Below are positions 463-23,367 of a DNA stretch of 23,910 bases, piece by piece. Source of the DNA: a virus; IMG/VR virus record IMGVR_UViG_3300036761_000941, positions 1 through 23,910 of that record. One strand, given 5' to 3'. Numbering within the stretch: the stretch's first letter is position 1; the number at the start of each line of letters is the position of its first letter. Made by a program: the position numbers and the translations under genes. The notes under the pieces are model-generated. The model was not told the origin of the DNA. It ran no database searches and worked only from the letters and a program-made list of their open reading frames with translations.

Positions 463-2439
463 ATGCCTCGCGAAGACCTTAAAAACTTTGCACAGAAGCG
501 TGCGTCGGCAAGTGTTCGCCCACACTATGTTGATTTAACTGATCCCGAAACTGGCAAATCCGGGGGAGCGGGTAGTCATCCGTTCCAAAAGTCAGCGACA
601 GGTGTCTCGAATCAATTCGGAGGGGCGTCCGTCATTCGGACGAACGCCAAACCGTACCACCCCCTCTTCTCTTCACCGGACCGGATGCAACTCCCGGTCC
701 AACTTGCCCAACTCAACCAGTACTGGCGTTTGTTCTACAACGTCGATCCCGTCATCGGCGGTGTCATGGACATGCACTCAGAGATGCCGTTCTCGAACGC
801 TTCTCTGATCATGGATCAGGTGGGTGACAACTCGAAGGAGATTCTGCACGCCTTTGAAGACATGATGACGGAGACTGAGCTGCTCTCCTGGCTCCCCCGC
901 ATCACGAAGGAATACCACATCATCGGTGAGGTGTTCCCCTATATGTTTTGGGATCAAGACGAGGGCATCTGGTCGCATATCACGATCCATAACCCCGACT
1001 ACGTTGAGGTGGTGGATTCGCCGCTGATTGACGACGATGCGATTTTGACTCTGCGCCCGTCTCAGGACATGCGGAAGATTCTTCAGAGTACGGACCCACG
1101 CTACATCCGCCTACGGCAGAAGCTGCCGGCTGAGATTGTGACCATGCTTGCGGGCGGTAAGAACCTCCCGCTCGATCCATTGAATGCGTCCCACATCAAG
1201 CGGACGGCGTTCCCGTATGACATCCGGGGCACGTCGATTATGGGTCGGATGTTCCGCATCCTGATGTATGAGGATGGAGTGTTCAACGGGCAGATTCAGC
1301 AGGCACAGCGTCACGCGCTGCCTCTTCGTGTCTTCAAGCTAGGCGACGCGAACCAAGGCTGGATGCCGACCCCAAGCAACCAAGAAGATTTCGCGCAGCT
1401 TCTGGCTGAAGTTGAAGTCGATCCGCTTGCAGCGATCATCTACTCCTACGCTTTGCAAGTGGAGTATCATGGTATCGAGGGGAAGCAACTCAAGATCACA
1501 CAGGAGTGGGATATCATTGAGCGTGCTAAACTGGTCGCCCTTGGGGTGTCGAAGGCGTTCCTCCATGGTGAAGTGACCTACGCAAGCGCGAACGCCGGGT
1601 TGCAAGTTCTGATGATGCGCTACCGGACGTATCGGGACATGCTCCTGAACGATTGGGTTTATAAAAAGGTATTCTCCACGATGGCTGAGCTTCGCGGCTT
1701 CTATCGGAATGAGAAGAAGTCGGACCCGGAATCGGCGCTCCCCGAGACGCGAGACCCTGCCCTGGAGAAGAAGACGATGTGGCTCCGGGATCGCCTGCGC
1801 GACATCAAGGGGATCAAGGACCCCGATGAGCAGGCGTATGAGTACGTCAAGATGAAACCGATTATCGACGCGCATAACGCGGCGACGCACCGCAGGCCAC
1901 TCTACATGAACCGCACCGCAGGGGCTCAGCGTTCGAAGGTTAAGAAGAATAAGCACCTCCTCTACCCAACCATACAATTTGAGAAGCGCTTGGATGTACG
2001 GCAGGACGAGAACATCTTGAACCTGTGGTTGCAGATGGCGCAGGCAGGCTGGGTCAGTCCCCGCACGGTTGTACAGGGTGCGGGTCTCGACTACGACTCT
2101 GAAATGGCGACTATCGGAGAGGATGCTGCGGGTATCATGCGTAACCAGCTACTCATGCAGGCTATGGGTGGCGGTGAGGGCGGTGGCGGTGGGGGCGGTT
2201 CTCCGATGGGCGGTATCGGCATCGGACCCGACGCGACGGGTCTTGGCCCTGAGGGTGGAGAAGGGGCGGCACCTGGAATGGGTGGTGGGGATCCAGGACC
2301 CGCCGCGGGTGGACCAAAAGCAACTGTCAAGTCCCAGCAGCGGAAGATCACGGCGTCGTCTCTGCCGGGAGATATCCGAGGCGAGATTGAAGCACTGATT
2401 CGCGATGACGGCAATGTTGATATTTTCGTGAAAGGCTGA
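463..2439 (+). CDS. Portal protein
   Basis: A 658-residue protein that I read as the portal, the dodecameric ring at the capsid vertex through which DNA enters and leaves. The N-terminal third has the feel of large-phage portals (a YWRLFYNVDPVIGGVMDMHS stretch at about residues 87-106, then an alpha/beta core). The middle has the long helical region typical of portal stems and wings. Residues about 568-620 are an extreme Gly/Pro/Met-rich linker, followed by a short charged tail ending VDIFVKG. The position upstream of protease, scaffold and capsid genes supports the call, although a 5.5 kb island separates them here. The ATG at 463 lacks a clear Shine-Dalgarno site. Assignment is by pattern and context, with no invariant catalytic motif to check. 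Confidence 0.75.
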   Translation: MPREDLKNFAQKRASASVRPHYVDLTDPETGKSGGAGSHPFQKSATGVSNQFGGASVIRTNAKPYHPLFSSPDRMQLPVQLAQLNQYWRLFYNVDPVIGGVMDMHSEMPFSNASLIMDQVGDNSKEILHAFEDMMTETELLSWLPRITKEYHIIGEVFPYMFWDQDEGIWSHITIHNPDYVEVVDSPLIDDDAILTLRPSQDMRKILQSTDPRYIRLRQKLPAEIVTMLAGGKNLPLDPLNASHIKRTAFPYDIRGTSIMGRMFRILMYEDGVFNGQIQQAQRHALPLRVFKLGDANQGWMPTPSNQEDFAQLLAEVEVDPLAAIIYSYALQVEYHGIEGKQLKITQEWDIIERAKLVALGVSKAFLHGEVTYASANAGLQVLMMRYRTYRDMLLNDWVYKKVFSTMAELRGFYRNEKKSDPESALPETRDPALEKKTMWLRDRLRDIKGIKDPDEQAYEYVKMKPIIDAHNAATHRRPLYMNRTAGAQRSKVKKNKHLLYPTIQFEKRLDVRQDENILNLWLQMAQAGWVSPRTVVQGAGLDYDSEMATIGEDAAGIMRNQLLMQAMGGGEGGGGGGGSPMGGIGIGPDATGLGPEGGEGAAPGMGGGDPGPAAGGPKATVKSQQRKITASSLPGDIRGEIEALIRDDGNVDIFVKG

Positions 2440-2457: not shown

Positions 2458-4194
2458 ATGAAGCGTACATTCCTGAGGTCCCTCGCAATCCTTCTCGGCA
2501 TTGCCACGTTCACCTTGGGTGCGACGGGGAGCGTTGTGACCTCCTCGAAGGCTGAACTGCTCGCCAAGGGTACGAGCCCCCGCACCCGGTACTTGGACGA
2601 TGGGGGAGACGATTATACTACTACGGTCACTGGTGGGGTATTCCGCATCGACAATCTCGACGGCCCTGACTTCCTTAACGTTCCTCCGACCGGCAGTATC
2701 GGCGTGGAGTTGAACGCTCCCACTTCGCTGGTGGTCACACCTTTCCTCGTGGGTGGTTCACTTGCTAATGGGTCTTACTACTACGTGGTCACAGCCCTTG
2801 ATGGATTTGGGGAGACTGTTGCCTCCAACGAGGTGCTGTGTACTATTTCGGGTGGTGGGGGGACCGGCCGGTGTGACTTGACTTGGACGGCAGTGTCACC
2901 TCCGGCGCAGACGTACCGTGTGTACCAAGGCGTTCTCCCGACTCAGGAAGACAACTATAAAGATGGTATTGTCGTTGCAAGTTACAGTGCGCTGACCAAT
3001 CCTCTTCCTGACTGTGGTCCTGCTCCATCTTGCGTGCCTCCGACTGCGACGACGGCGTACTTCATCCGCATGGCGCCTGACGGCGTTCACTTCTCGGATG
3101 GGACTATACAGAATACGGCGGGCGGTTCGGCTGCTTGGCAGATTCCAGCCTTTACCAGCAACATTGTCTCTGCACAGAGTGGCAACGTCGGCATTGGGAA
3201 TGGGACGAGCTTCGTCCCTGATGCGAAGCTGACGGTTCTGGGTAATGGCATCGACCTCAACGATTGGGGCGCTCTTCGTCCGCTCGCTGTGGACAACATG
3301 CAGATGCGGTCGAATTACAAGATTTCGACTGATCGGCTGTGGGATGTAAGCAAGTCCACCTGGACTGTGGTTGCGGGAGACGGCTCTGATGAGTTTGCAG
3401 TTTACCGAGCCCCAGCGACGGCCGGCGCTCCGGTTTACGCAGTGAAGCTCACCGTTACGTCTACGGTGTTCGCTAGCAAGAACTTCAGCGCGGTGTTTGG
3501 CGCTTCCACTCTCAGTGCTGGATCATACACGTTCCAGGGATCGAGTACGGACCTGAACATCAACGCCGGCCTCGGCGGTACATCTTCGCTCAACTTCAAC
3601 GTGGCGGGTGGCAAAGGTTTCGTCCTAAGCGCGGACGGCTTGAATACGCAATTCGATTACAGCGGCACGTTGAGTTTCAACGCCCCGGTGGGTGGCAGTC
3701 AGGTCGCCTCGATTAACCCTACGGGTCTCATCTTCGGCGCCGAAGGACTCACATCGAATGGTGATGTTGTGGTGGCGGGGCGTGCGCGTGCGAGCTTGAT
3801 GGGTCAAGCTTGTGCGCTTGAAGCTGTTGACATCCAGGCCACTGGAACATTTACGCTCACGCCGTCAGTGACGATAACGGCTGGTGGGAGTAACCACGTC
3901 CGTGTTGAGGCAGGGTTCAATGGGTTTTATCACTCGCAAAACTCCGACCAGAAGGACTTTCAGGCGTCCCTCCTTCGGTCCGCGACTACGATTGATGCTG
4001 GTGATGAACAGCGTGTAAATCCGGTTGCTGCGGGCACACAGGAGGTTCCGGTCTCGTGGCATTTGCAAGCCATCGACCTCCCGACTGCTGGGTCTGTTTC
4101 TTACCACGTCCAGGTCGCGGCGCCATCGGGGACGTGGAACGCGTCAAACTACTTGAGGGGCACGGTGAAAATCTGCGCCTATGAGATTCCGTAA
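2458..4194 (+). CDS. Fibre-like protein with signal-peptide-like N-terminus
   Basis: A 578-residue protein with AAGGGG (2446-2451) six bases before the ATG. Residues 1-25 (MKRTFLRSLAILLGIATFTL then GATGS) have the basic, hydrophobic, small-residue pattern of a signal peptide. Residues about 88-185 look like an Ig/FN3-type module common in phage fibres (NGSYYYVVTALDGFGETVAS, then TYRVYQG). The middle is Gly/Ser/Thr/Asn-rich beta sequence. The last 110 residues form a possible knob-like beta domain ending KICAYEIP. I infer a tail fibre, spike or adhesin subunit. The apparent export signal is odd for a virion protein, because virions assemble in the cytoplasm. Its TAA overlaps the ribosome site of the next gene. 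Confidence 0.55.
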   Translation: MKRTFLRSLAILLGIATFTLGATGSVVTSSKAELLAKGTSPRTRYLDDGGDDYTTTVTGGVFRIDNLDGPDFLNVPPTGSIGVELNAPTSLVVTPFLVGGSLANGSYYYVVTALDGFGETVASNEVLCTISGGGGTGRCDLTWTAVSPPAQTYRVYQGVLPTQEDNYKDGIVVASYSALTNPLPDCGPAPSCVPPTATTAYFIRMAPDGVHFSDGTIQNTAGGSAAWQIPAFTSNIVSAQSGNVGIGNGTSFVPDAKLTVLGNGIDLNDWGALRPLAVDNMQMRSNYKISTDRLWDVSKSTWTVVAGDGSDEFAVYRAPATAGAPVYAVKLTVTSTVFASKNFSAVFGASTLSAGSYTFQGSSTDLNINAGLGGTSSLNFNVAGGKGFVLSADGLNTQFDYSGTLSFNAPVGGSQVASINPTGLIFGAEGLTSNGDVVVAGRARASLMGQACALEAVDIQATGTFTLTPSVTITAGGSNHVRVEAGFNGFYHSQNSDQKDFQASLLRSATTIDAGDEQRVNPVAAGTQEVPVSWHLQAIDLPTAGSVSYHVQVAAPSGTWNASNYLRGTVKICAYEIP

Positions 4195-4204
4195 GGAGAT
4201 GAAG

Positions 4205-4579
4205 ATGAGGAAGATATTCGCATCGTTGGTCCTCGCTGTCTTCTTGACGGCTTCCGCATTCGCGGCTGACCCGACGCACACCTATACGTTTCCTGTACGA
4301 CTCCACGACTACCCACTGGTCGCTACCTTGAGTGTGTGGGAAGCAGAAAACACCTGGCGGGTGGACTTTGTGGATGCTTCCCATGGTGAGGAGCAGGTCG
4401 TCCCTCACCCTTCGTCGATGTCGTTCGGCGGTTCGTTCACGGATGCGGATGGAATGCGGACGTTCTCGACCGACTACGCTCACGCGAGCATTTTCTTCAA
4501 GAAGGATGGGAACGCGCTCACGTTTGATCACGCCTCAGTTCACTTCGAGATGGAGAAGGTGACAGTACTCCCAAACTAG
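4205..4579 (+). CDS. Small secreted protein, unknown function
   Basis: A 124-residue protein from the ATG at 4205. I prefer this start over ATGs at 4181 and 4199 because AAGGAG (4193-4198) lies exactly six bases upstream. The first 20 residues, MRKIFASLVLAVFLTASAFA, are a textbook Sec signal peptide with an AFA cleavage site. The mature part (about 104 residues) is predicted from composition to be a single beta-rich domain with no Cys and many aromatic and His residues. I recognise no family. Together with its two signal-bearing neighbours it suggests an exported protein set. It could be a small surface or periplasmic protein, or a fibre accessory protein. Confidence 0.6.
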   Translation: MRKIFASLVLAVFLTASAFAADPTHTYTFPVRLHDYPLVATLSVWEAENTWRVDFVDASHGEEQVVPHPSSMSFGGSFTDADGMRTFSTDYAHASIFFKKDGNALTFDHASVHFEMEKVTVLPN

Positions 4580-4580
4580 A

Positions 4581-5222
4581 ATGGAAAAGGTCCTGCATAT
4601 TTACGCTCCGATCCGGGGAACGATCTCGCCTGCTGCTGGGACTTTGAACCCTGGGGACATCGTGACAATAGACACGAACATTCCTGCGACGGTGGTCTAC
4701 ACGCGCGATGGCAGCGAACCACACTTGGGGGCGTTCGGGTCTTTGCGGGCCGACGCACCTGTGGAGGTTGAACTGCGGGTATCAACCCGCATTCGCTTCA
4801 TGGCATTCGACAATCGTTTGGGGCAGGAGACCAATGCGACGAAGACACAGGAAGCGATGTTCGAGATAGTACGTAAGAACCCTATCGAAATTTTCCGCGA
4901 CACGACTAACTTCTACCGCCGCCTGGTCAAGAGCATCGTGGATCAGAACTTCTATCTTACAGAGGGGAAGTGGGTGGTGCCAGTCGGTAGCCGACCGTTC
5001 ACTTACGTGTTTGTGAACCGTGAGGGGTTTCCAATTCTTCTGCGCGTTCTCCACAATGGGGTGGACGTGTTCAACCAATTCCCTATCGTGGGATTGAATG
5101 AGGCGAAAGAGATTCCGATTCGTCCCATATCTGGTGAGAACATCATCGAAGTCCAAACACATCGCGCTGGTTCGACAGCGCTCTACGACATCGGAAGATA
5201 CGGCGTGGACACGTACGCCTAG
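4581..5222 (+). CDS. Protein with chitobiase C-terminal-like domain
   Basis: A 213-residue protein whose ATG follows the previous stop by one base, so translation is probably coupled. Residues about 20-95 resemble the chitobiase/beta-hexosaminidase C-terminal domain (CHB_HEX_C type). They carry a PGDIVTI segment, then VVYTRDGSEP (residues 38-47), the family's characteristic 'YT-DGSEP' turn, then RIRFMAFD. This is a non-catalytic Ig-like module often found in extracellular and surface proteins. The C-terminal half (VRKNPIEIFRDTTNFY onward) has no family I recognise. Unlike its neighbours it has no signal peptide. Probably a structural or tail-associated protein. The domain call is from motif only. 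Confidence 0.5.
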   Translation: MEKVLHIYAPIRGTISPAAGTLNPGDIVTIDTNIPATVVYTRDGSEPHLGAFGSLRADAPVEVELRVSTRIRFMAFDNRLGQETNATKTQEAMFEIVRKNPIEIFRDTTNFYRRLVKSIVDQNFYLTEGKWVVPVGSRPFTYVFVNREGFPILLRVLHNGVDVFNQFPIVGLNEAKEIPIRPISGENIIEVQTHRAGSTALYDIGRYGVDTYA

Positions 5223-5253
5223 CATGCAAAACAAAAAAGAATCGGAGGCGGTG

Positions 5254-7443
5254 ATGCGTAAATTCATATCGGCACTTGTGGCATTGACCGCGTTTTTGAT
5301 GATGGCGAAGCCGGTCTACGCGGTGACGAACTTCCCGGGAGCGGTGGATGCCACTGTCCTTTTTGGTACGGCGGTCTTCGGGCAACCCGTGAAGAAGGAG
5401 ACGATCAACAACCTCCGCGATGCAGTCATTGCATTGGAGACAAAGGTTGGTGTGAATTCTAGCATAGTTACGACGACTTTAGACTATCTGCTCAAGAGCG
5501 CCGCGAGTGTTAATCCTGGTCATCTACACACAGGCGCTTCGTTGTCGGCCATCGACGCGAGCACTATCACGATTGGGACTTTGGGCGATGCGCGCTTGTC
5601 CGCGAACATCGCTCGGCTCAACGGTACAAACACGTGGTCTGCCACGCAGACTTTCAGCGCGGGTATCAACGTCACGGGTACGGCCACAGCGACGTTGTTC
5701 AGCGGGAGTGGCGCTAGCCTGACGAGCATCCCTGAGACCGCTATTACCAACGGAGCCCTGCTCGCCCGTGTGGGTGACACTGAGACCGTCAATGGCAGTT
5801 GGACTTTTAATTCACCTCCCTTCGCATCAGGCACAAACTTCTCTAATATCCCTGAGGGGGCGATCCTTGACGGAACCTTCCTGGCGCGGGTGGCGGCCAA
5901 CGAGTCGATCGCGGGTACGTGGTCTTTCGTTGGCAACATCGCCAAGATCAGGAACGTTTCGCTGCTCTGGCCTGCGTCGAATAGCGCAGGAACGTTGACG
6001 AACGATGGGTCCGGAAACCTTAGTTGGGCTGCTGCCGGCGGCGCAGGATTTTTTCAGGGGGGGAATTCCTTTACGGCGCCTGCTGTCCTCGGGACAAATG
6101 ATGCTTTCGATCTTGTTTTTGAGAGAAGTAATGTTAGCATTGCGACGATTCAAGCCGCTGGGTTTAACCCCTTCACGGACAACACCTTTGCACTCGGCAC
6201 ATCTGCTCTGCGTTGGTCTTCCCTCCACCTCGGTCCCTCTTCGCTGGTTATCCATAACGATGCGACCAACACCGATAAGACGACTTTCGCCTATTCAGGA
6301 GGGCTTGTTCTGTGGAACGCTACAGCCGGGACACCACTCAAGATGAGTGCGTCGGCCGTAGCTGGAACATCACCTCTCCAGTTCACGGCAGACACGACAT
6401 CTGGAACCGCTTCGACCAAGCAGTTCTTCTTCCAGATGGCGAATACAGGGGCTCCGAATGTCAATCCGCTGCGAGGTGTCTACATCGCGGAGCCAGCGAA
6501 CGCTTTCACGGGCGCTCAAAGCAACCTCTTTGTGGAGGATGCGACTAAGGCGAGCGGCGTGAAGTATTCGGCTGAGTTTGCTGGTACGACCTCTGTCTAC
6601 AAGAATTTTGAGATAGGTGATGCGAACGTGGGCGGTGCTCGCCTTGCGATAGACAATGGTGCTGGCTCGCACGGCGCAGCCGGCACGATCATCGAGAAGT
6701 TGAAGCAGCACGCTTCGCAGTCGGGGAACGTCTTCCAAGTCCAGACTTCAAGCGATAACGTTCAGTGGGCGATTGGTGCGAACGGCTTCACTGTCATGGG
6801 TGGTGTGAATGCTACGATAGGTACTGATCGCCTGCGGCTCATCGGATCGACCGCTGACAGCACTGCCAACGCTCTTTTGGTACAGTCCTCGGCCGCATCG
6901 GGGAGCCTCTTCACGGTTCGTAACGATGGACAGTCTTTGTTTGGCGGTACTGTTATCGCTGGTACGGACAACTCGTTCGACATCGGTAACTCCACCACCG
7001 GGTCTTTCCGCACTGCGTACTTTGACACGTCGGTTGTGTCACCCCTCTTCACGTTCGGGGGGGCTCTCTCCGTCACGACGACTGCATCAAACGGCGACAT
7101 CACTCTCGACGCGGACGGCACTGGCAACATCATCGCCAGTGATCTCTTTCGTCCATCCGGCGACAATACCATTGACCTCGGTTCCTCGTCCTTCTCGTGG
7201 AAGACTCTCTACGCGGACACGTCTGTGTTGACACCGCTTGTGTCCTTCGGGGGAGCGTTGTCGATCACTACGACCTCGGCAGGTAGCATCACGATCACGC
7301 CTAACAGCGGCAGCAGCGTTCTGCTGGGTGCGTCGGCCGGTAACAACCAGGCTGCGCTTTGCATTGCAGATGCAAGTGGGACTATTGGACACTGCACCAG
7401 CACTGTGGGTGCGGGTGGCCTCTGCACCTGCGTCGCGAACTAG
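5254..7443 (+). CDS. Large tail-fibre-like repeat protein with signal peptide
   Basis: A 729-residue protein. The ATG at 5254 is chosen because GGAGG (5244-5248) sits five bases upstream and the first 23 residues (MRKFISALVALTAFLMMAKP then VYA) form a clean signal peptide with a VYA cleavage site. The mature N-terminus has a fibre-type segment (PGHLHTGASLSAIDASTI). Two 40-residue repeats follow at about 154 and 194 (SIPETAITNGALLARVG versus NIPEGAILDGTFLARVA). Three copies of a 'DN-x-DLG-S-W-LY' motif lie at about 308, 571 and 637, the last two as long tandem repeats. Such repeats are typical of trimeric beta-helical tail fibres. The C-terminus is Cys-rich (CIADASGTIGHCTS) and lacks a recognisable S74 chaperone domain. 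Two G7 tracts lie inside the gene. Confidence 0.6.
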   Translation: MRKFISALVALTAFLMMAKPVYAVTNFPGAVDATVLFGTAVFGQPVKKETINNLRDAVIALETKVGVNSSIVTTTLDYLLKSAASVNPGHLHTGASLSAIDASTITIGTLGDARLSANIARLNGTNTWSATQTFSAGINVTGTATATLFSGSGASLTSIPETAITNGALLARVGDTETVNGSWTFNSPPFASGTNFSNIPEGAILDGTFLARVAANESIAGTWSFVGNIAKIRNVSLLWPASNSAGTLTNDGSGNLSWAAAGGAGFFQGGNSFTAPAVLGTNDAFDLVFERSNVSIATIQAAGFNPFTDNTFALGTSALRWSSLHLGPSSLVIHNDATNTDKTTFAYSGGLVLWNATAGTPLKMSASAVAGTSPLQFTADTTSGTASTKQFFFQMANTGAPNVNPLRGVYIAEPANAFTGAQSNLFVEDATKASGVKYSAEFAGTTSVYKNFEIGDANVGGARLAIDNGAGSHGAAGTIIEKLKQHASQSGNVFQVQTSSDNVQWAIGANGFTVMGGVNATIGTDRLRLIGSTADSTANALLVQSSAASGSLFTVRNDGQSLFGGTVIAGTDNSFDIGNSTTGSFRTAYFDTSVVSPLFTFGGALSVTTTASNGDITLDADGTGNIIASDLFRPSGDNTIDLGSSSFSWKTLYADTSVLTPLVSFGGALSITTTSAGSITITPNSGSSVLLGASAGNNQAALCIADASGTIGHCTSTVGAGGLCTCVAN

Positions 7444-7451
7444 GAGAAGTC

Positions 7452-7919
7452 ATGGCTGACACCTTTACCGTGAACTACAAGCTGCGCCTCCCGCAGCTCG
7501 GCAAGAAACCCTGGAAGTCGGATTGGGATAACAATTTTACGAAAATCGACCAGCTTCTTGGTGGGTTGATCATCGACGGGTCTGTGTGTGCTAAGTGCGC
7601 AACCTCTATCGACCCCACAGCGATTAGCGCGTTTATCGAGTCCACAACGGGTGACTTGACGGGTGCGGCGTCTATCCCCGCAGGAGAGACGGCTGAGATT
7701 CGTATCGACCACTCAGCCGACATAGTGTTCGACTTCCCACTAGACCCGATATTCCTGGCTCCAGTGGGCGTCAACTGCATCCTTGTGGGGGACAGGACCG
7801 TGGCGTTGAACGCTTCGGAGTACGGGGGGGTGTTCGTCGTCCGTGTTGAGAACCACACTGGGAGTACGCTGCTTGTTACGAGCGTTACTTGGCTACGTAA
7901 AGGATTCAAGTTGTCGTAG
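7452..7919 (+). CDS. Phage tail-associated protein, unknown role
   Basis: A 155-residue protein starting MADTFTVNYKLRLPQLGKKP. The ATG at 7452 is chosen because AGGAGA (7442-7447, overlapping the upstream TAG) precedes it. The opening (FTVNYKLRLPQLG...W..DWDNNFTKIDQLLG) resembles the N-terminus of small phage tail and fibre-adjacent proteins. The rest is a beta-rich domain that I read as a fibre tip or capping domain. A G7 run (7824-7830) lies in the gene. It is the last gene of the island between portal and protease and is translationally linked to the large fibre-like gene before it. Confidence 0.45.
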   Translation: MADTFTVNYKLRLPQLGKKPWKSDWDNNFTKIDQLLGGLIIDGSVCAKCATSIDPTAISAFIESTTGDLTGAASIPAGETAEIRIDHSADIVFDFPLDPIFLAPVGVNCILVGDRTVALNASEYGGVFVVRVENHTGSTLLVTSVTWLRKGFKLS

Positions 7920-7958: not shown

Positions 7959-8159
7959 ATGGGATTCATCAAAACCGCAGAGACTGAGACTTCCGCAGTG
8001 CTGGACGAGCAGGGCCGGGTCAACCGGGTGTTCGATCGCCTGGGCAAGGACGAGGCAACGGAATTGGAAATCCTCCGTGCCGCCCGTGCTCTGGGCGTGA
8101 CGGTGGGAACCCTCCGTGAACACTGCGACGTGACCCCCGACGGCCTCAAGCGCCGCTAA
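7959..8159 (+). CDS. Small conserved-looking head-operon protein, unknown function
   Basis: A 66-residue acidic/basic helical protein. AGGAGA (7945-7950) lies eight bases upstream. The C-terminal half (ATELEILRAARALGVTVGTL then REHCDVTPDGLKRR) looks like a helix-turn-helix-like or small helical-bundle segment ('LG-V-T-VGTLREH'). This hints at nucleic-acid or protein binding but is not enough to name a family. It is the first gene of the protease/scaffold/capsid group and its TAA overlaps the AAGGAG of the protease gene. It could be a small regulator or a head assembly factor. Confidence 0.5.
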   Translation: MGFIKTAETETSAVLDEQGRVNRVFDRLGKDEATELEILRAARALGVTVGTLREHCDVTPDGLKRR

Positions 8160-8170
8160 GGAGAACGTGG

Positions 8171-10354
8171 ATGTTTGTGAAGCTGGGGATGGTGGCGGTG
8201 GAGAGCGTCCTGAGCAGGGACGAATTCACTACGCGCCTGGCGGACCGCAAGATCGTAGAGTACGACCCTGAGTACGTTTACGTGGTGGTTCGAGCACTTA
8301 CAGCCGATAAACCTAATTCAAACGGCGACTGCTTCCCGCACGATGAACTGGTGCGCCTGGACCCGGTGCTCCATCGTCCAGTGTACGCTTCCTTCATCGG
8401 GAAGGGCGTCTACATCAACCACCAGCACACCGACGATCCTCGCTACGCCAAGGGCATCATCCTCGACTCGCGCTACGTCGAAGGCAACAAGGAAGACAAG
8501 TATGTTGAGCTTCTCCTGGGCATTGACAAGCAGAAGGACCCAATCTTCGCTCGTGATGTTGAGAGGGGATTGATCAATAAGTTCTCGATGGGTGCTTCGG
8601 TGCAATTCACCAAGTGCTCCGTCTGTCAGAACGAGGCTCGCCGCAAGGAAGAGTTCTGCGAGCACATTGCCAAGCACAAGATGCGCAGCGTTAAGGCTCA
8701 GGACGGGTCTGAAAAGCTCGCCTACGAACTTTGTTACGGTGTAACCTACAACGAGATTTCGGCGGTCTCTGACCCTGCGGATGAGACGGCGCAACTTCTG
8801 CACCGAATTGCCAATTCCACCACGAACACGGAAAACCGCAGCGGAAGTGGCGATAGCGCAAATCCATCCCACGGAACAGTTGTAGTCTTGAACGACATCA
8901 ACGCTCGTTTGAAGAGACTGGAGGCTGCGATAATGGCTAATCGAAGGACTGCTGCTCCCCTACCCTCTGCGGCACCGACGCCTCCGGCGGCAGGACCTGC
9001 CGGACCTGGCTTGGGTGATGATCCGATGGGTGGAGCGCCCACGGATGACCTGATGATGGAGGGCGAGGAAGGCGGTGAGGTGGTTGAGGTTCTCAAGATC
9101 GTGGAAGACCTTGTGACCCATCGCGTGCCTGCGGCCGATGCCGTTCAAGCCCTGGAGCAGATTCTTGGTGGCGACCCCACGGGTCCTACCGACGCACCCG
9201 GTGCAGAGATGGGTGCTCCCGAGCCGCCGCCTGTCGATATGGCCGGTCCGACCGCTGCCGCGTTCAGCACCTGGCTCAGGAAGGTTTCCAAGAGCGTGAA
9301 GGAGAGGTCCATGAAGACCGCTGATGATAAGTCCCCGAAGGTGGACAACCAGTACCCTTACAAGAAGCGTCAGTCCGACCCGAAGCAGTTCCCGAACCCT
9401 GGGCACGACAGCCGGCATGAGAGTCGTCCTGCGGGGGATTTCGCGAGCGACTCCAAGGAGTACGGGAAGCTGACTAACGTGTCGGCCGAGTTCACGTCCA
9501 ACAAAGACCGCCGACTCTCTGGCTGGAGAATTCTCGACGGCGAGACTCCTCTGTACATGGTCACGGGTGGTAACGCCTGGGGCGCTCATCTGAATGAGCA
9601 GTGGGAGCGCTTCGCAAGTCGGGAATACGGCACTGCGCTTGTATCGGCGATTCTCGAAGATGGTCTGGACGAGACGATGACGCGCGTCAACGCCATTAAG
9701 GCGGGTGGCACGACTCCGAAGAATGCGAACGTGCTCGACAACGAGAAGCTTATCCAGGCTGCGGAGGCGAAGGCTGCCGATGTGGCGCAGGAACTGAACG
9801 AGGATTTCGTGGTCCGCTTTGTGGAGGGCATGAAACTCGCTCTGAAGTTGCAGGACAAGAACGTCTTCGACAACCCGATCAAGGGAGCCGCGTGGGAAGT
9901 CCTCACGGCGAACGGCTTCGACGGAAAGCTGGCAGAGAAGATCGCCAGTGGTGCCGTGATCGAGGCGCACTTCGACGAGGCCATGCGCAAGGCGCTGGAG
10001 TACACGGAGATGTCGCCGGAGTCTTTCGAGGAAGTGAAGGCGCAGGCTGAGTCTATGACCGCTCGATCGGTTACGGCTTCGGTTGATACCGAGCACGGTG
10101 CTGGGGCGATCAGTGAGGCTGAGGCTCTTGCGGCCATGGAAGAGTCAACCCTGGAGCATCTGAATCGGCGTGCTAGTCGCAACGTCGGCGGTGTGAAGAT
10201 GCAGCACCCGGGTGAGACTCCGAGCAAGGGTTATGATGCGTCGATCTCGGCGGCTGTCCGCATGGGAAATTCGACAATATCGTCTGCCCCGACCAATGCT
10301 GAAGGGAATCGTCCGCCGGCATCAGCGTACGGTAAGCCTCGGGCGACCGCGTAA
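8171..10354 (+). CDS. Prohead protease fused to scaffold-like C-terminal domain
   Basis: A 727-residue protein. Residues 1 to about 215 look like a prohead serine protease: YINHQHTDDPRYAKGIILDS (81-100) supplies the catalytic His, and NKFSMGASV (136-144) contains the Ser-Met-Gly nucleophile motif. A Cys/His knuckle follows (C149, C152, C163, H165), and then YNEISAVSDPADETA (193-207), the usual end of the fold. Such proteases cleave scaffold and capsid proteins during head maturation. After residue 235 comes a possible coiled coil (LNDINARLKRLEA), a Pro/Ala/Gly-rich acidic stretch, and a long helical region. I read this as the internal scaffold, giving a protease-scaffold fusion. It starts at ATG 8171 behind AAGGAG. 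An in-frame ATG at 8933 appears able to make the scaffold alone. Confidence 0.75.
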   Translation: MFVKLGMVAVESVLSRDEFTTRLADRKIVEYDPEYVYVVVRALTADKPNSNGDCFPHDELVRLDPVLHRPVYASFIGKGVYINHQHTDDPRYAKGIILDSRYVEGNKEDKYVELLLGIDKQKDPIFARDVERGLINKFSMGASVQFTKCSVCQNEARRKEEFCEHIAKHKMRSVKAQDGSEKLAYELCYGVTYNEISAVSDPADETAQLLHRIANSTTNTENRSGSGDSANPSHGTVVVLNDINARLKRLEAAIMANRRTAAPLPSAAPTPPAAGPAGPGLGDDPMGGAPTDDLMMEGEEGGEVVEVLKIVEDLVTHRVPAADAVQALEQILGGDPTGPTDAPGAEMGAPEPPPVDMAGPTAAAFSTWLRKVSKSVKERSMKTADDKSPKVDNQYPYKKRQSDPKQFPNPGHDSRHESRPAGDFASDSKEYGKLTNVSAEFTSNKDRRLSGWRILDGETPLYMVTGGNAWGAHLNEQWERFASREYGTALVSAILEDGLDETMTRVNAIKAGGTTPKNANVLDNEKLIQAAEAKAADVAQELNEDFVVRFVEGMKLALKLQDKNVFDNPIKGAAWEVLTANGFDGKLAEKIASGAVIEAHFDEAMRKALEYTEMSPESFEEVKAQAESMTARSVTASVDTEHGAGAISEAEALAAMEESTLEHLNRRASRNVGGVKMQHPGETPSKGYDASISAAVRMGNSTISSAPTNAEGNRPPASAYGKPRATA
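8875..8886 (+). promoter_or_regulatory. Copy of AACAGTTGTAGT element inside the protease gene
   Basis: AACAGTTGTAGT, identical over 12 bases to the elements at 7931 and 16574, lies inside the coding sequence. It falls exactly at the junction of protease and scaffold regions, about 47 bases before the internal scaffold ATG (8933). Its position suggests an internal promoter or control site for the nested scaffold product. It is followed by CTTG rather than the TATAG/TAGGG seen at other copies. Confidence 0.35.
8933..10354 (+). CDS. Nested in-frame scaffold protein (internal start)
   Basis: An in-frame ATG at 8933 (Met255 of the protease ORF) is preceded by a perfect GGAGG at 8920-8924, eight bases upstream. 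Starting here gives a 473-residue product (MANRRTAAPLPS...) that contains only the scaffold-like part, with no protease residues. The arrangement matches the known lambda logic, in which Nu3 scaffold starts inside the gpC protease gene in the same frame. Expression of this separate product is an inference from the ribosome site and domain boundary. The region contains Pro/Ala/Gly-rich, acidic and long helical segments, as expected for a scaffold. Confidence 0.45.
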   Translation: MANRRTAAPLPSAAPTPPAAGPAGPGLGDDPMGGAPTDDLMMEGEEGGEVVEVLKIVEDLVTHRVPAADAVQALEQILGGDPTGPTDAPGAEMGAPEPPPVDMAGPTAAAFSTWLRKVSKSVKERSMKTADDKSPKVDNQYPYKKRQSDPKQFPNPGHDSRHESRPAGDFASDSKEYGKLTNVSAEFTSNKDRRLSGWRILDGETPLYMVTGGNAWGAHLNEQWERFASREYGTALVSAILEDGLDETMTRVNAIKAGGTTPKNANVLDNEKLIQAAEAKAADVAQELNEDFVVRFVEGMKLALKLQDKNVFDNPIKGAAWEVLTANGFDGKLAEKIASGAVIEAHFDEAMRKALEYTEMSPESFEEVKAQAESMTARSVTASVDTEHGAGAISEAEALAAMEESTLEHLNRRASRNVGGVKMQHPGETPSKGYDASISAAVRMGNSTISSAPTNAEGNRPPASAYGKPRATA

Positions 10355-10426: not shown

Positions 10427-11188
10427 ATGGCACTGAAGGTAATCACTCCGAGCGCGAATACGGGTTTCGATCCGGTCGGCGCTGACGACTATCGGTCGGG
10501 TATGATCGCGGCTCGCGACAATGACGCCAATGTTGTTGTTTGCGGTTCCGTAAACGACCCCGATGCCGGCACCAAGCCGATCGGTGTCCTGGGCGAGGAT
10601 AGACTTTCGGCAGCCCTCCAGACGACCACGCAGAAGGACGAGGAACTTACGGTTCCGGCGGCTGTCACTACGCCGGCTGTCGCCCTGTCGAAGGACGCCA
10701 TCGTGCCGAATTCCCAGCGTCTGTTCAATGTCACCCTGGACGTCGCTCTGGTGGAGGGCACGGACTACACACTCGTCGATGCGACGGGTGTCGTCACGTT
10801 CATCAACACGGGTAACGTCGATCCGGGTAATATCGTCCAGGCGACGTACACGTTCAAGCTGAACGATACGTTCGAGCAGAATTTCCGCGGTACAAACTTC
10901 AAGGGCAGTGGGGATGATACGGAAGGTAGCAAAAAGGCGACCGTCTGGAAGGGCTGGGGTGAATTCGAGACCGATCAGTTCGTCACCGCTGTTGCCTACA
11001 CGCCTGGTGATCTGCTTCGTGTGACTCTGGTCGGCCACAGCATGGGTGCCGGTCTTCTGACTAACGAAGCCGCGGGCGCAAATGTCGCCGTTGGCCCTTC
11101 GGCCACTCTCGGCATTGCTCGTGTGACTAAGGTTCCGACTGCGAGCGACCCGTTCATCGGATTCGAATTCGTCCCGGCGGCTGCGTAA
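10427..11188 (+). CDS. Probable capsid decoration protein
   Basis: A 253-residue protein immediately before the major capsid gene, with a strong GGGAGG ribosome site. The sequence is beta-rich, lacks Cys after the first 50 residues, and has a repeated Gly/Thr/Val pattern (TDYTLVDATGVVTFINTGN). This resembles Ig-like beta domains of virion surface proteins. Its position between protease/scaffold and major capsid protein is where decoration or head-stabilising proteins usually lie. Its codons look similarly optimised to those of the capsid gene, which suggests high expression. There is no catalytic motif. Alternative: a minor capsid subunit. Confidence 0.55.
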   Translation: MALKVITPSANTGFDPVGADDYRSGMIAARDNDANVVVCGSVNDPDAGTKPIGVLGEDRLSAALQTTTQKDEELTVPAAVTTPAVALSKDAIVPNSQRLFNVTLDVALVEGTDYTLVDATGVVTFINTGNVDPGNIVQATYTFKLNDTFEQNFRGTNFKGSGDDTEGSKKATVWKGWGEFETDQFVTAVAYTPGDLLRVTLVGHSMGAGLLTNEAAGANVAVGPSATLGIARVTKVPTASDPFIGFEFVPAAA

Positions 11189-11237: not shown

Positions 11238-12398
11238 ATGGCTGCTGTAAATCCCTACGTGAGGAATGAGGAAGCCCGCAAGAAGGTTGCGGCACTTCTC
11301 AATCCCGAGTCGCCCAAGGCGTTCGGCGGTGTGACCGCGACGGGCGCTACCGTCAAGTCCGCCAATCGGATGTTCGACGGCAAGAACGAAACTAACGCCT
11401 GGGACAAGAAGGACGCCCTCCGTCAGGCTCAGCATCTGCTCGACCTCGTGGCAAAGGGTGAGGAGCGCATTGGCACTCCCAAGTCCGTCACGGCGTCCAG
11501 CATCTCGCCGTCCGAGCGAGCCGACATCTTCCTTCAGGCCTTCTCCGACCCGAGTGGTCAGGGCTTCGCCAAGATCGGTCAGGAGCTTCTTCTGCCCATC
11601 AAGGAAATCATCGACTATGAGGGTTTCGCCCGTCGAATCCTCAAGACGTACACCCTGGCTCAGGGGCAGGTGAACCGTATCGACCGTGACGTGGACGTTG
11701 CAGCCTTCGTCGTGTCGAGTGACGGTCGTGCCGTCGAGACGCGGGTTTCGGATCGGTACATCTTCCCGCCGGAGTTCGAAGTGACGGCCTTCCCGTCGAT
11801 TCGAATCTCGGAAGTCTTCCAGAAGCAGTTCGATGTTCTGGATCGCGCTCAGGATCGTGCCAAGCAGGCGATCATGCGTCAGGAGGACCAGGGTCTCATC
11901 TCTGTCCTGACTGCCGCTGCTCCGAACTTCAACGATGTGGTGAGCTTCTCCTCGCTCAACCTCCAGGCCCTGGAGTCCATCCGCTTTCAGGTCGAGCGGC
12001 ATCGTCTCGTGTGCTCGAAGTTCCTCATCAACCGTCGGGAGCTTTCCGACATGGTGATCTTCCTCAGTCAGCAGGTTGATCCGGTGACGGAGCGTGAGTG
12101 GCTCATGATGGGCTACGTCGGCCGCATCCTCAATGCGGACATCATCACGACTGCCGGCACTCGCGTCGGTCAGGGCGGTCTCGGTCGCCTTGCGGTCAAC
12201 TGGGAAATCGTGCCTCCGGGCAAGGTGTTCGCGGTTGCTGATCCCGACTATCTCGGTGTGTTCCCCGTCCGTGTGGAACTGATGGCCGAGCCGGCTAACA
12301 AGTTTGTGTTCGGCGAGCCCCGGTACGCATGGCTCTTCTACGAATTGATCAGTCAGGTTGTTATCAACCCTCGTGGAGTAGCCCTCGGCACCAAGTAG
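11238..12398 (+). CDS. Major capsid protein (HK97 fold)
   Basis: A 386-residue protein behind GGAGG (11226-11230). Length, gene order and layout fit an HK97-fold capsid subunit: a charged helical N-terminal arm (residues 1-100), an extended E-loop-like region with many Arg/Asp residues (about 145-185), and a helical P-domain (QKQFDVLDRAQDRAKQAIMR). The C-terminal A-domain has the segment VGRILNADIITTAG and the ending PRYAWLFYELISQVVINPRG, typical of large-phage capsids. The N-terminal segment may be removed by the prohead protease. It uses strongly preferred codons and is followed by an intrinsic terminator, both consistent with the most abundant virion protein. Confidence 0.8.
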   Translation: MAAVNPYVRNEEARKKVAALLNPESPKAFGGVTATGATVKSANRMFDGKNETNAWDKKDALRQAQHLLDLVAKGEERIGTPKSVTASSISPSERADIFLQAFSDPSGQGFAKIGQELLLPIKEIIDYEGFARRILKTYTLAQGQVNRIDRDVDVAAFVVSSDGRAVETRVSDRYIFPPEFEVTAFPSIRISEVFQKQFDVLDRAQDRAKQAIMRQEDQGLISVLTAAAPNFNDVVSFSSLNLQALESIRFQVERHRLVCSKFLINRRELSDMVIFLSQQVDPVTEREWLMMGYVGRILNADIITTAGTRVGQGGLGRLAVNWEIVPPGKVFAVADPDYLGVFPVRVELMAEPANKFVFGEPRYAWLFYELISQVVINPRGVALGTK

Positions 12399-15939: not shown

Positions 15940-16560
15940 ATGTGTCGCGAGGGCTTGATTGTGGGTGGATTCGCCTCAGTCAAGTGGTATTACAAGCCGC
16001 TCCAGTGGGGGCTTCAGAAGGAGGGGTTCGATGTGGAATTCATCCATCCCGCCCCTCGCTTCGATGTCTTCGGCATCAATGTCTGGCCGCTTGAAGTCTT
16101 CCTCGCCAACGCGATCCCTGCCGTCAACGCGATCCCCGGTGATCTGTTCCTTGTCGGTCACAGCTTGGGGGGTATTCAGTCCATTTTGCTGGCAGACCTC
16201 TTCCCCGACAAGATCAGGAAGGTTTTCGCCATTGGCACTCCAGTGTGGGGTTGTCCGCTTCAGATGTATGAGGACGCTATCCGCACAATGCTCAATGTTC
16301 CGCAAGGCGAGTTGGAACGTTTCCGCCAGGAGATTGTCCCGCGCAATGCGAAAAAGATCGTCACGGTGTCTTGTGAAGATGACATCCTCGCGCCTCGTCC
16401 GAAATGTGCAATTGAGGGCGCGACGAACTACGTCGTGACGGCGGACGAGACGGGCAGATCGTCGTCCCACCTGCTCCTGCCGTATTTGGCCGCTACTATT
16501 CGGATCATCTCTGAGGAGACCCGAGCGATTATTGACACTCCTCTTATCCAACCCGCCTGA
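15940..16560 (+). CDS. Alpha/beta hydrolase (lipase/esterase), possible lysis esterase
   Basis: A 206-residue protein. The ATG at 15940 is eight bases after AAGGAG (15926-15931). The nucleophile elbow is G73-H74-S75-L76-G77-G78. An Asp at 147 or 148 (CEDDILAPR) and H177 (SSSHLLLPYL) complete a plausible Ser-Asp-His triad in the correct order. There is no signal peptide and no membrane segment. The early segment (LIVGGFASVKWYYKPLQWGL) matches the opening strand and loop of lipases. Phages of mycolic-acid bacteria encode such hydrolases as LysB, which releases the outer lipid layer during lysis, and that is one possible role here. Alternatives are a virion esterase for surface polysaccharide or an intracellular esterase. 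Confidence 0.75.
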   Translation: MCREGLIVGGFASVKWYYKPLQWGLQKEGFDVEFIHPAPRFDVFGINVWPLEVFLANAIPAVNAIPGDLFLVGHSLGGIQSILLADLFPDKIRKVFAIGTPVWGCPLQMYEDAIRTMLNVPQGELERFRQEIVPRNAKKIVTVSCEDDILAPRPKCAIEGATNYVVTADETGRSSSHLLLPYLAATIRIISEETRAIIDTPLIQPA

Positions 16561-22917: not shown

Positions 22918-23367
22918 ATGGCCTTGCACAACTTCGGCATTGTGGACTACACTCGCCTCTATCGAGGCGCCCAGCCCGACGAGAAGGGTTACACCGACCT
23001 GTGGCAGTTGGGGGTGCGCGAGATCATGACGTTGAACTCGGCGGACCCGAACAGCTTTGGGTGGAGTGGGACGGTACTCGCACGAGTCATGAATGGGATG
23101 GAGTCGTTGCTCGAAGTCGAGAAGATCGTAGGGGACCTGAGGCGTTCAATCGAAGTGGGACGGACGGTGTTTGTTCACTGCACGCACGGGCGTGACCGCA
23201 CGGGTTGTGTTATCGGGGCCTACCGTATCATTGAATGTGGATGGAACTTCGCGAAGATGGAAGAAGAACGGTTGCTCTACGGTGAGAAATTCGTCCTTGA
23301 AGTGGTAGATGAGAACGTTATGCAGGTGCTTCATGCCCTCGCGAAGAAAAAAGGACTGGATTACTAA
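22918..23367 (+). CDS. Dual-specificity/tyrosine phosphatase
   Basis: A 149-residue single-domain protein. The PTP loop HCTHGRDRTG (87-96) has nucleophile C88 and R94 in the CX5R spacing, preceded by hydrophobic VFV. The N-terminal LYRGAQPDEKGYTDLWQLGV (14-33) and IMTLN (36-40) match the substrate-facing start of DSP-type phosphatases. An Asp in SADPN (41-45) may be the general acid. It should dephosphorylate phosphotyrosine, phosphoserine/threonine or another phosphate ester; the substrate is unknown. It has no signal peptide and acts in the cytoplasm. The gene follows the J-domain gene by three bases and its TAA overlaps the next ATG (TAATG), so the three genes form a coupled unit. Confidence 0.8.
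   Translation: MALHNFGIVDYTRLYRGAQPDEKGYTDLWQLGVREIMTLNSADPNSFGWSGTVLARVMNGMESLLEVEKIVGDLRRSIEVGRTVFVHCTHGRDRTGCVIGAYRIIECGWNFAKMEEERLLYGEKFVLEVVDENVMQVLHALAKKKGLDY

What the first reader, a model, noticed from the sequence alone, without database searches (positions are those of the whole stretch)
2458..7443. Island of signal-peptide proteins between portal and protease
Three of the four proteins encoded between 2458 and 7443 begin with export signals (clear at 4205 and 5254, probable at 2458), and two are long fibre-like proteins. Portal and protease genes usually adjoin, so this is an insertion in the head cluster. Virion fibres assemble in the cytoplasm, so Sec signals are unexpected. The proteins could be exported adhesins or surface-altering proteins made by the infected cell, or fibres captured from bacterial secreted proteins.
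Basis: partly seen in the sequence, partly recalled or inferred. Interest (0 to 1): 0.7.

Follow-up and report, generated by a model that had tools for sequence, protein, structure and literature searches.

The report
Phage fibres carrying bacterial export signals
A giant bacterial virus carries a gene cassette in which virus-type fibre proteins bear the address label that cells use to ship proteins outside, which suggests the infected cell exports viral fibres, perhaps to hide its own surface from other viruses.

Summary
Between portal (463-2439) and protease (8171-10354) of a jumbo-type phage fragment lie four genes, three with Sec-type signal peptides: A 2458-4194 (weaker), B 4205-4579, D 5254-7443. 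C 4581-5222 has none. Shine-Dalgarno sites support these starts.

D is the key. Directly after its predicted cleavage site (KPVYA|VTNFP) begins a phage-fibre N-terminal module. In 90 of 94 module genes from other viral contigs no signal was found (3 of the 90 are cut at the N-terminus). D matches an HMM of signal-less modules at E 7.6e-19, from residue 25. Five other viral contigs carry a signal in front of the module. Only 2 of 10 pattern hits in 84,980 cellular genomes carry the module. D is best read as a phage fibre that gained an export signal.

In sister phages the slot holds fibre-like genes, none read in full with a signal. C's sister homologue lies beside Baseplate_J. The island is a variable appendage cassette.

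Most likely: Sec-exported fibres binding the infected cell's own envelope (superinfection exclusion). Alternatively they dock on virions after lysis. Export and function are inferred; SignalP was unavailable, so I used a home-made rule.

The parts
463..2439 (+). portal protein, left border of the slot
   Evidence: phrog_16240 E 9.8e-88; 70% identical segment in sister contig L015
2458..4194 (+). A: long fibre-like protein (578 aa) with probable signal peptide; 6 Cys
   Evidence: residues 275-351 match a fibre-like ORF in the sister's slot (L007/L151, E 6.8e-6), whose own N-terminus is cut by the contig end
2458..2523 (+). predicted signal peptide of A (cleavage about residue 22; alternative after SSKA, residue 32)
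   Evidence: 173 of 5000 shuffles reach the score; the alternative site is read by eye
4205..4579 (+). B: small protein (124 aa) with signal; no match in the phage collection; low-confidence all-beta model
4205..4264 (+). classic signal peptide of B (MRKIFASLVLAVFLTASAFA; the rule cleaves at 18, by eye 20)
   Evidence: 3 of 5000 shuffles; Shine-Dalgarno AAGGAG
4581..5222 (+). C: no signal peptide; CHB_HEX_C_1 domain; homologue of a baseplate-operon protein of the sister phage
   Evidence: Pfam E 4.4e-8; 44% over 196 of 213 residues to L155 16128-16730, next to Baseplate_J
5254..7443 (+). D: signal-peptide phage fibre (729 aa)
5254..5322 (+). signal peptide of D (MRKFISALVALTAFLMMAKPVYA|V)
5326..5556 (+). 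phage-fibre N-terminal module of D, residues 25-101; the HMM match starts at the second residue after the predicted cleavage site
   Evidence: HMM of 44 signal-less modules, E 7.6e-19 at Z=100; 51 of 82 tblastn alignments start at residue 25, 57 of 82 at 25-27
7360..7431 (+). C-terminal cluster of all four cysteines of D
7452..7919 (+). E: small structural-type protein, no signal; its homologue follows the portal directly in the sister phage
   Evidence: 73% to L004, 44% to L015 13434-13886
7959..8159 (+). F: small conserved protein upstream of the protease
8171..10354 (+). head maturation protease, right border of the slot
   Evidence: phrog_18299 E 1.2e-33

Best explanation
The island is a variable appendage (fibre) cassette in the portal-protease slot of a jumbo-type myovirus, and here its fibres are addressed for Sec export. 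In D a Sec signal peptide stands exactly in front of a canonical phage-fibre N-terminal module, so signal peptidase I would release a fibre with almost its native N-terminus (VTNFP... against M-ATNFP...) outside the cytoplasm. A (fibre-like) and B (small protein) are exported the same way; C and E stay inside. Shown by sequence: the starts, the signals, the module, the junction, recurrence in other phages, the variability of the slot. Inferred: that export and cleavage happen, and the last step. I commit to this last step: the exported fibres bind the infected cell's own surface polysaccharide or receptors and mask them, giving superinfection exclusion and keeping progeny off cell debris. T5 does this with the exported lipoprotein Llp, and free T5 receptor-binding protein pb5 added to cells also blocks infection.
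For: Signals at A, B and D with ribosome sites. D matches the HMM of 44 non-redundant signal-less modules at E 7.6e-19, from residue 25, with predicted cleavage at 23|24; 51 of 82 tblastn alignments to module loci start at residue 25. Recurrence: 4 of 94 in-frame module genes of the first pattern scan and 4 of 4 of a subtype scan (three shared) carry a signal fused at the module start: five contigs in all (L057, L068, L082, L102, L143). Phage structural genes lie beside them by PHROG or Pfam hit in L057, L068, L102 and L143 and by eye in L082. L068's 42-kb contig has three signal-bearing long proteins within four consecutive genes, one with Laminin_G_3. Signal-peptide proteins also occur downstream of the capsid genes of relatives (sister L009 11346; Rctr197k L002 19125 and, by eye, 19703). 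All 4 complete signal-bearing module proteins have 4-8 cysteines, an even number, against 4 of 45 signal-less ones with at least 4. The sister contig (139.5 kb) has no copy of D's module, so a docking partner for D on its own virion is not evident. Precedent: PMC9586334 (passages).
Against: No experiment and no SignalP. A's signal is only probable. The cysteine contrast shrinks when only signal-less proteins of at least 400 aa are compared (4 of 11 have at least 4). 15 of 82 tblastn alignments start upstream of the cleavage site and 10 well inside the module, so the junction is not seen in every pairing. D keeps the whole module, which, if it is a virion-docking domain, would be superfluous in a cell-surface mask. 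Receptor and host are unknown. The window is a fragment, so a signal-less partner fibre cannot be looked for. A GTG codon sits right at D's cleavage site and could start a signal-less form, though its ribosome site is poor (-2.9).
Confidence: 0.5

Rival explanations
1. Exported fibres that dock on virions outside the cytoplasm: A and D are exported, fold in the periplasm or outside, and attach by the conserved module to virions as lysis releases them.
For: The module and its native N-terminus are kept at the cleavage site. The module looks like a shared docking piece: N-terminal, with different C-terminal parts, flanked by head and tail-fibre genes (phrog_240 head protein 14 of 97 scanned neighbours), and present twice in one locus (L041, L070, L080, L107/L099). 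In L068's 42-kb contig the fibre- or lectin-like genes that I could recognise by eye are the signal-bearing ones.
Against: No tailed phage is known to me to assemble fibres this way (recalled). The module is absent from the sister contig and Rctr197k. That the module is a docking domain is inferred only.
Confidence: 0.2
2. The hydrophobic N-termini are membrane anchors (uncleaved), holding fibre-like proteins on the inner membrane or cell surface.
For: L143, L057 and L068's contig also carry structural-type proteins with N-terminal hydrophobic segments (by eye and rule).
Against: B and D have clear A-x-A sites, and in D the module starts at the site.
Confidence: 0.1
3. Ordinary virion fibres: the signals are not used, or the working start lies downstream, for example at GTG 5323, which would give M-TNFP.
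For: A GTG codon lies exactly at the module start, and the slot holds fibre-like genes without a detected signal in relatives.
Against: Ribosome site -9.5 at 5254 against -2.9 at 5323. In the five signal-bearing relatives the residue there is Ala, no start codon. For B no such alternative was seen.
Confidence: 0.12
4. Fibres captured from bacterial secreted proteins.
For: Signal peptides as such are a bacterial trait (general knowledge; no call bears on it).
Against: 2 of 10 cellular pattern stretches carry the module, neither with a signal. C is a phage baseplate-operon relative. GC is not foreign.
Confidence: 0.05

Closest known systems
   Same: D carries the module (E 7.6e-19) with fibre-like sequence downstream
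   Different: D has a Sec signal in front of it, as five other viral contigs do; in 90 of 94 module genes of the scan no signal was found, three of them cut at the N-terminus
T5 Llp / T1 Cor superinfection-exclusion lipoproteins
   Same: phage-encoded, exported, Llp encoded next to the receptor-binding protein pb5; receptor blocking (PMC9586334, passages)
   Different: A, B and D have no lipobox cysteine and two are long fibres; no receptor known
Lambda Lom
   Same: signal-peptide protein encoded between tail spike and tail fibre genes, placed in the host membrane (PMC12309495, passage)
   Different: a beta-barrel outer-membrane protein, not a fibre
Rctr197k 051-053 cassette after its major capsid gene
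   Same: signal-bearing proteins, one long, in the head region of a relative (portal 44.8%)
   Different: other position and other proteins; a GQSNALG esterase-like motif (recalled) without Pfam hit

Membership tests
Phage-fibre N-terminal module family | sequence match to the module | tested here: met
   E 7.6e-19
Phage-fibre N-terminal module family | module at the (mature) N-terminus | tested here: met
   HMM match starts at the second residue after the predicted cleavage site; 57 of 82 alignments start at residues 25-27
Phage-fibre N-terminal module family | present in the virion | not testable with these tools
   needs virion proteomics
Sec/SPI-exported proteins | n-, h-, c-region with A-x-A-type site at the translated N-terminus | tested here: met
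   B and D clear, A probable; home-made rule
Sec/SPI-exported proteins | export and cleavage in a cell | not testable with these tools
   reporter or mass spectrometry needed
Superinfection-exclusion lipoproteins (Llp/Cor) | lipobox cysteine at the cleavage site | tested here: not met
   no Cys at the sites of A, B or D
Superinfection-exclusion proteins | blocks receptor or adsorption | not testable with these tools
   -
Bacterial secreted protein captured by phage | closest relatives in cellular genomes | tested here: not met
   for D's module only: 94 of 96 viral and 2 of 10 cellular pattern stretches; A and B were not searched in cellular genomes

The most novel reading that the evidence does not exclude
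A class of tailed phages makes part of its virion outside the cytoplasm: fibres with a conserved docking module are exported through Sec, folded and disulfide-bonded there, and clip onto virions at lysis. This arose several times by fusing a signal peptide at the module's native start.
Probability: 0.2. Interest if true: 0.85.

Novelty: new variant of a known kind. Interest (0 to 1): 0.6.

Why it matters
Fibres of tailed phages are taken to be made and assembled in the cytoplasm. A signal peptide fused at the native start of a fibre module, in a jumbo-type myovirus and again in phages with different capsid families, suggests that fibres are being sent elsewhere. Either receptor-binding proteins are re-used as exported receptor masks, an easily evolved route to superinfection exclusion, or part of the virion is assembled outside the cell. 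Both are testable on cloned genes.

Tried and rejected
Led nowhere: tblastn in 50,697 phage records of A and D (E limit 1e-5), of D's first 134 residues and B (limit 1) and of one canonical module (limit 0.01): no match, with BLAST's low-complexity filter on; viral-contig scans with the portal and with D alone. AlphaFold of B (pLDDT 51) and of D's module (pLDDT 56) was too poor for fold searches, so none was made. Pfam gave nothing for A, D or Rctr197k 053. One search wasted a scan through my frame slip in the pattern; one search is the corrected one.

Rejected: bacterial capture (see rivals); foreign base composition as evidence of recent insertion; cysteine richness as proof of export (length confounds); an early idea that the sister contig's two ends overlap (no exact overlap of 15-200 bases), so its slot is read as two ends of one contig with an unknown gap. 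My notebook entry still says the ends join; that is superseded.

Literature: searches (open PMC library, listings). Passages by find in PMC13282480, PMC3556154, PMC5723332, PMC7162821, PMC8144416, PMC12309495, PMC9586334, PMC3426561. None of what I saw describes signal-peptide fibres of tailed phages. [quoted passage not shown] Most subscription papers are not in that library.
Full report
What the window is. The window is a 23,910-base IMG/VR virus record and reads as the head module of a jumbo-type myovirus: holin 72-350 (PF06946), portal 463-2439 (phrog_16240), island A-D, E, F, protease 8171-10354 (phrog_18299), an unnamed gene 10427-11188 and the major capsid gene 11238-12398 (phrog_2522). 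Relatives by portal include Virus Rctr197k (44.8% over 57% of the portal) and Bacillus phage G. A sister contig carries contractile-tail sheath and baseplate genes; that this phage is a myovirus is inferred from that.

The signals. My rule flags A, B and D and one P-loop protein among 26 genes. The three have Shine-Dalgarno pairing of -7.3 to -9.5 kcal/mol. 22.8% of all start-like codons reach -6 and 7.3% reach -8, so this is support, not proof. By hand arithmetic, three such genes all falling in one chosen run of four of 26 would occur with chance 4/2600; the run was chosen after seeing it.

The slot. In 17 relatives' loci with both genes in view, portal and protease adjoin within 106-275 bp in 12 and are 1.5-2.85 kb apart in 5 (gaps measured to the first possible start). 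Two of the five (L019, L020) hold a long repeat-rich fibre-like gene there, without a detected signal. In the nearest relatives in which the slot can be read (capsid 83-84% identical), the portal end of one contig shows E's homologue directly after the portal and, one small ORF further on, a fibre-like gene (L015), and the protease ends show fibre-like genes, then F and the protease (L007, L008, L009); none of those with a readable N-terminus has a detected signal. In L004 (capsid 97%) the 245 bases in front of E show no D-like sequence. So the island occupies a changeable appendage slot. C's homologue in the sister (44% over 196 of 213 residues) lies directly behind the Baseplate_J gene, so the cassette mixes fibre and baseplate-type genes. 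A shares a segment of 60-77 residues with a sister slot ORF (E 6.8e-6).

The decisive comparison. D's sequence after the predicted cleavage site contains an ALETKVG...VTTTLDY motif. A DNA pattern for it found 96 stretches in 2.9 million viral contigs. 94 encode it in frame (78 of 80, 16 of 16; L046 and L071 do not); in 90 no signal was found. Of these 90, three (L038, L093, L113) are cut at the N-terminus; most of the rest start with the module itself (M-A-T-N-F-P or similar). Many are near-duplicates: 45 complete signal-less ones are non-redundant. The same pattern in 84,980 cellular species' genomes gave 10 stretches, 2 with the module in frame (L134, L141), neither with a signal; an eleventh check, whether those two are prophages, was not made. 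An HMM from 44 non-redundant signal-less modules finds D at E 7.6e-19, aligned from D residue 25; predicted cleavage is 23|24. Of 82 tblastn alignments between D and the module loci, 51 begin at residue 25, 57 at 25-27, 15 upstream and 10 well inside the module. The signal thus stands where the module's own Met-Ala stood.

Recurrence. Four of the 94 carry a signal in front of the module (L057, L068, L082, L102). A subtype pattern gave four stretches, all four with signals, one new (L143). The cleavage sites read AYA|AFP, AHA|ACNPVSPNFP, VWA|ANTFP, VWA|ANTFP and VLA|ANQFP. Setting: L057 and L102 have terminase (phrog_2) and a phrog_332 head-tail adaptor match, L102 also a major head protein (phrog_267); L068's contig a major head protein (phrog_9953); L143 a Phage_capsid_4 protein (at the cut-off) and an M23 peptidase, with terminase- and portal-like genes by eye; L082 structural-type genes by eye only. 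L068's 42-kb contig has three signal-bearing long proteins within four consecutive genes (a small ORF lies between the first two), one with Laminin_G_3. L057, L082, L102 and L143 share a subtype and may be one event; L068 and the window look like two more (inference, no tree was built).

Cysteines. All four complete signal-bearing module proteins have at least four cysteines and an even number (8, 8, 6, 4), against 4 of 45 signal-less ones with at least four (Fisher p 0.0003). Among signal-less proteins of at least 400 aa it is 4 of 11, so the contrast is partly length. D's four cysteines all lie in its last 27 residues.

Where the module usually sits. Of 145 neighbour genes listed, I scanned 97 against PHROGs: 14 match phrog_240 (head protein), 5 phrog_1357 (major head protein), 3 or fewer each several tail-fibre and tail-fibre-assembly families. 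In four non-redundant loci two places carry the module. A virion-docking role is a fair inference, not shown. The sister contig (139.5 kb) and Rctr197k show no match; both may be incomplete.

How it most likely works. The proteins are exported during infection and act outside (inferred). Masking the infected cell's own receptors is my choice: T5 blocks its receptor with an exported protein encoded beside its receptor-binding protein, and purified receptor-binding protein added to cells blocks infection too (PMC9586334, passages). Docking on virions after lysis is the bold alternative. It explains better why the module is kept, but no partner is seen in relatives.

Limits. No SignalP, no host, no full genome, no virion data. 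Structure predictions were uninformative.

Noticed in passing
L015 10001-13390: The sister phage's portal ORF is 1129 aa, with an insert after residue about 383 that reads like an intein with homing-endonuclease-like sequence (by eye; the two flanks match the window's portal)
   Followed up: no
L002 18780-21775 (Virus Rctr197k): Right behind the major capsid gene: two or three signal-bearing proteins, one long with a GQSNALG esterase-like motif but no Pfam hit, just upstream of holin- and spanin-like genes (by eye)
   Followed up: partly
L007 8104-8463 and L009 11346-11705: Small signal-peptide protein (119 aa) conserved in two sister contigs between capsid and later structural genes
   Followed up: no
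L152 16195-19122 and L153 113-1264: Two further signal-peptide proteins in one phage contig: a 975-aa repeat protein starting VVDLYQGGTG after its signal and a LamG protein, near the module-bearing one
   Followed up: partly
L143 6558-7181 and 7709-8089; L057 7079-7869; L157 9745-10170: Structural-type proteins with N-terminal hydrophobic segments near portal and capsid genes in contigs that also have signal-bearing fibres (by eye and rule)
   Followed up: no
L157 1104-2630: GroEL-like ORF, with a possible GroES-like ORF before it, in the 42-kb phage contig (by eye)
   Followed up: no
window 15940-16560 and 22918-23367: GHSLGG alpha/beta-hydrolase-like and HCTHGRDRTG phosphatase-like proteins among the later genes (motifs recalled; the first had no PHROG hit, the second was not searched)
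   Followed up: no
window 5323: GTG codon exactly at D's predicted cleavage site could in principle start a signal-less form; weak ribosome site
   Followed up: yes
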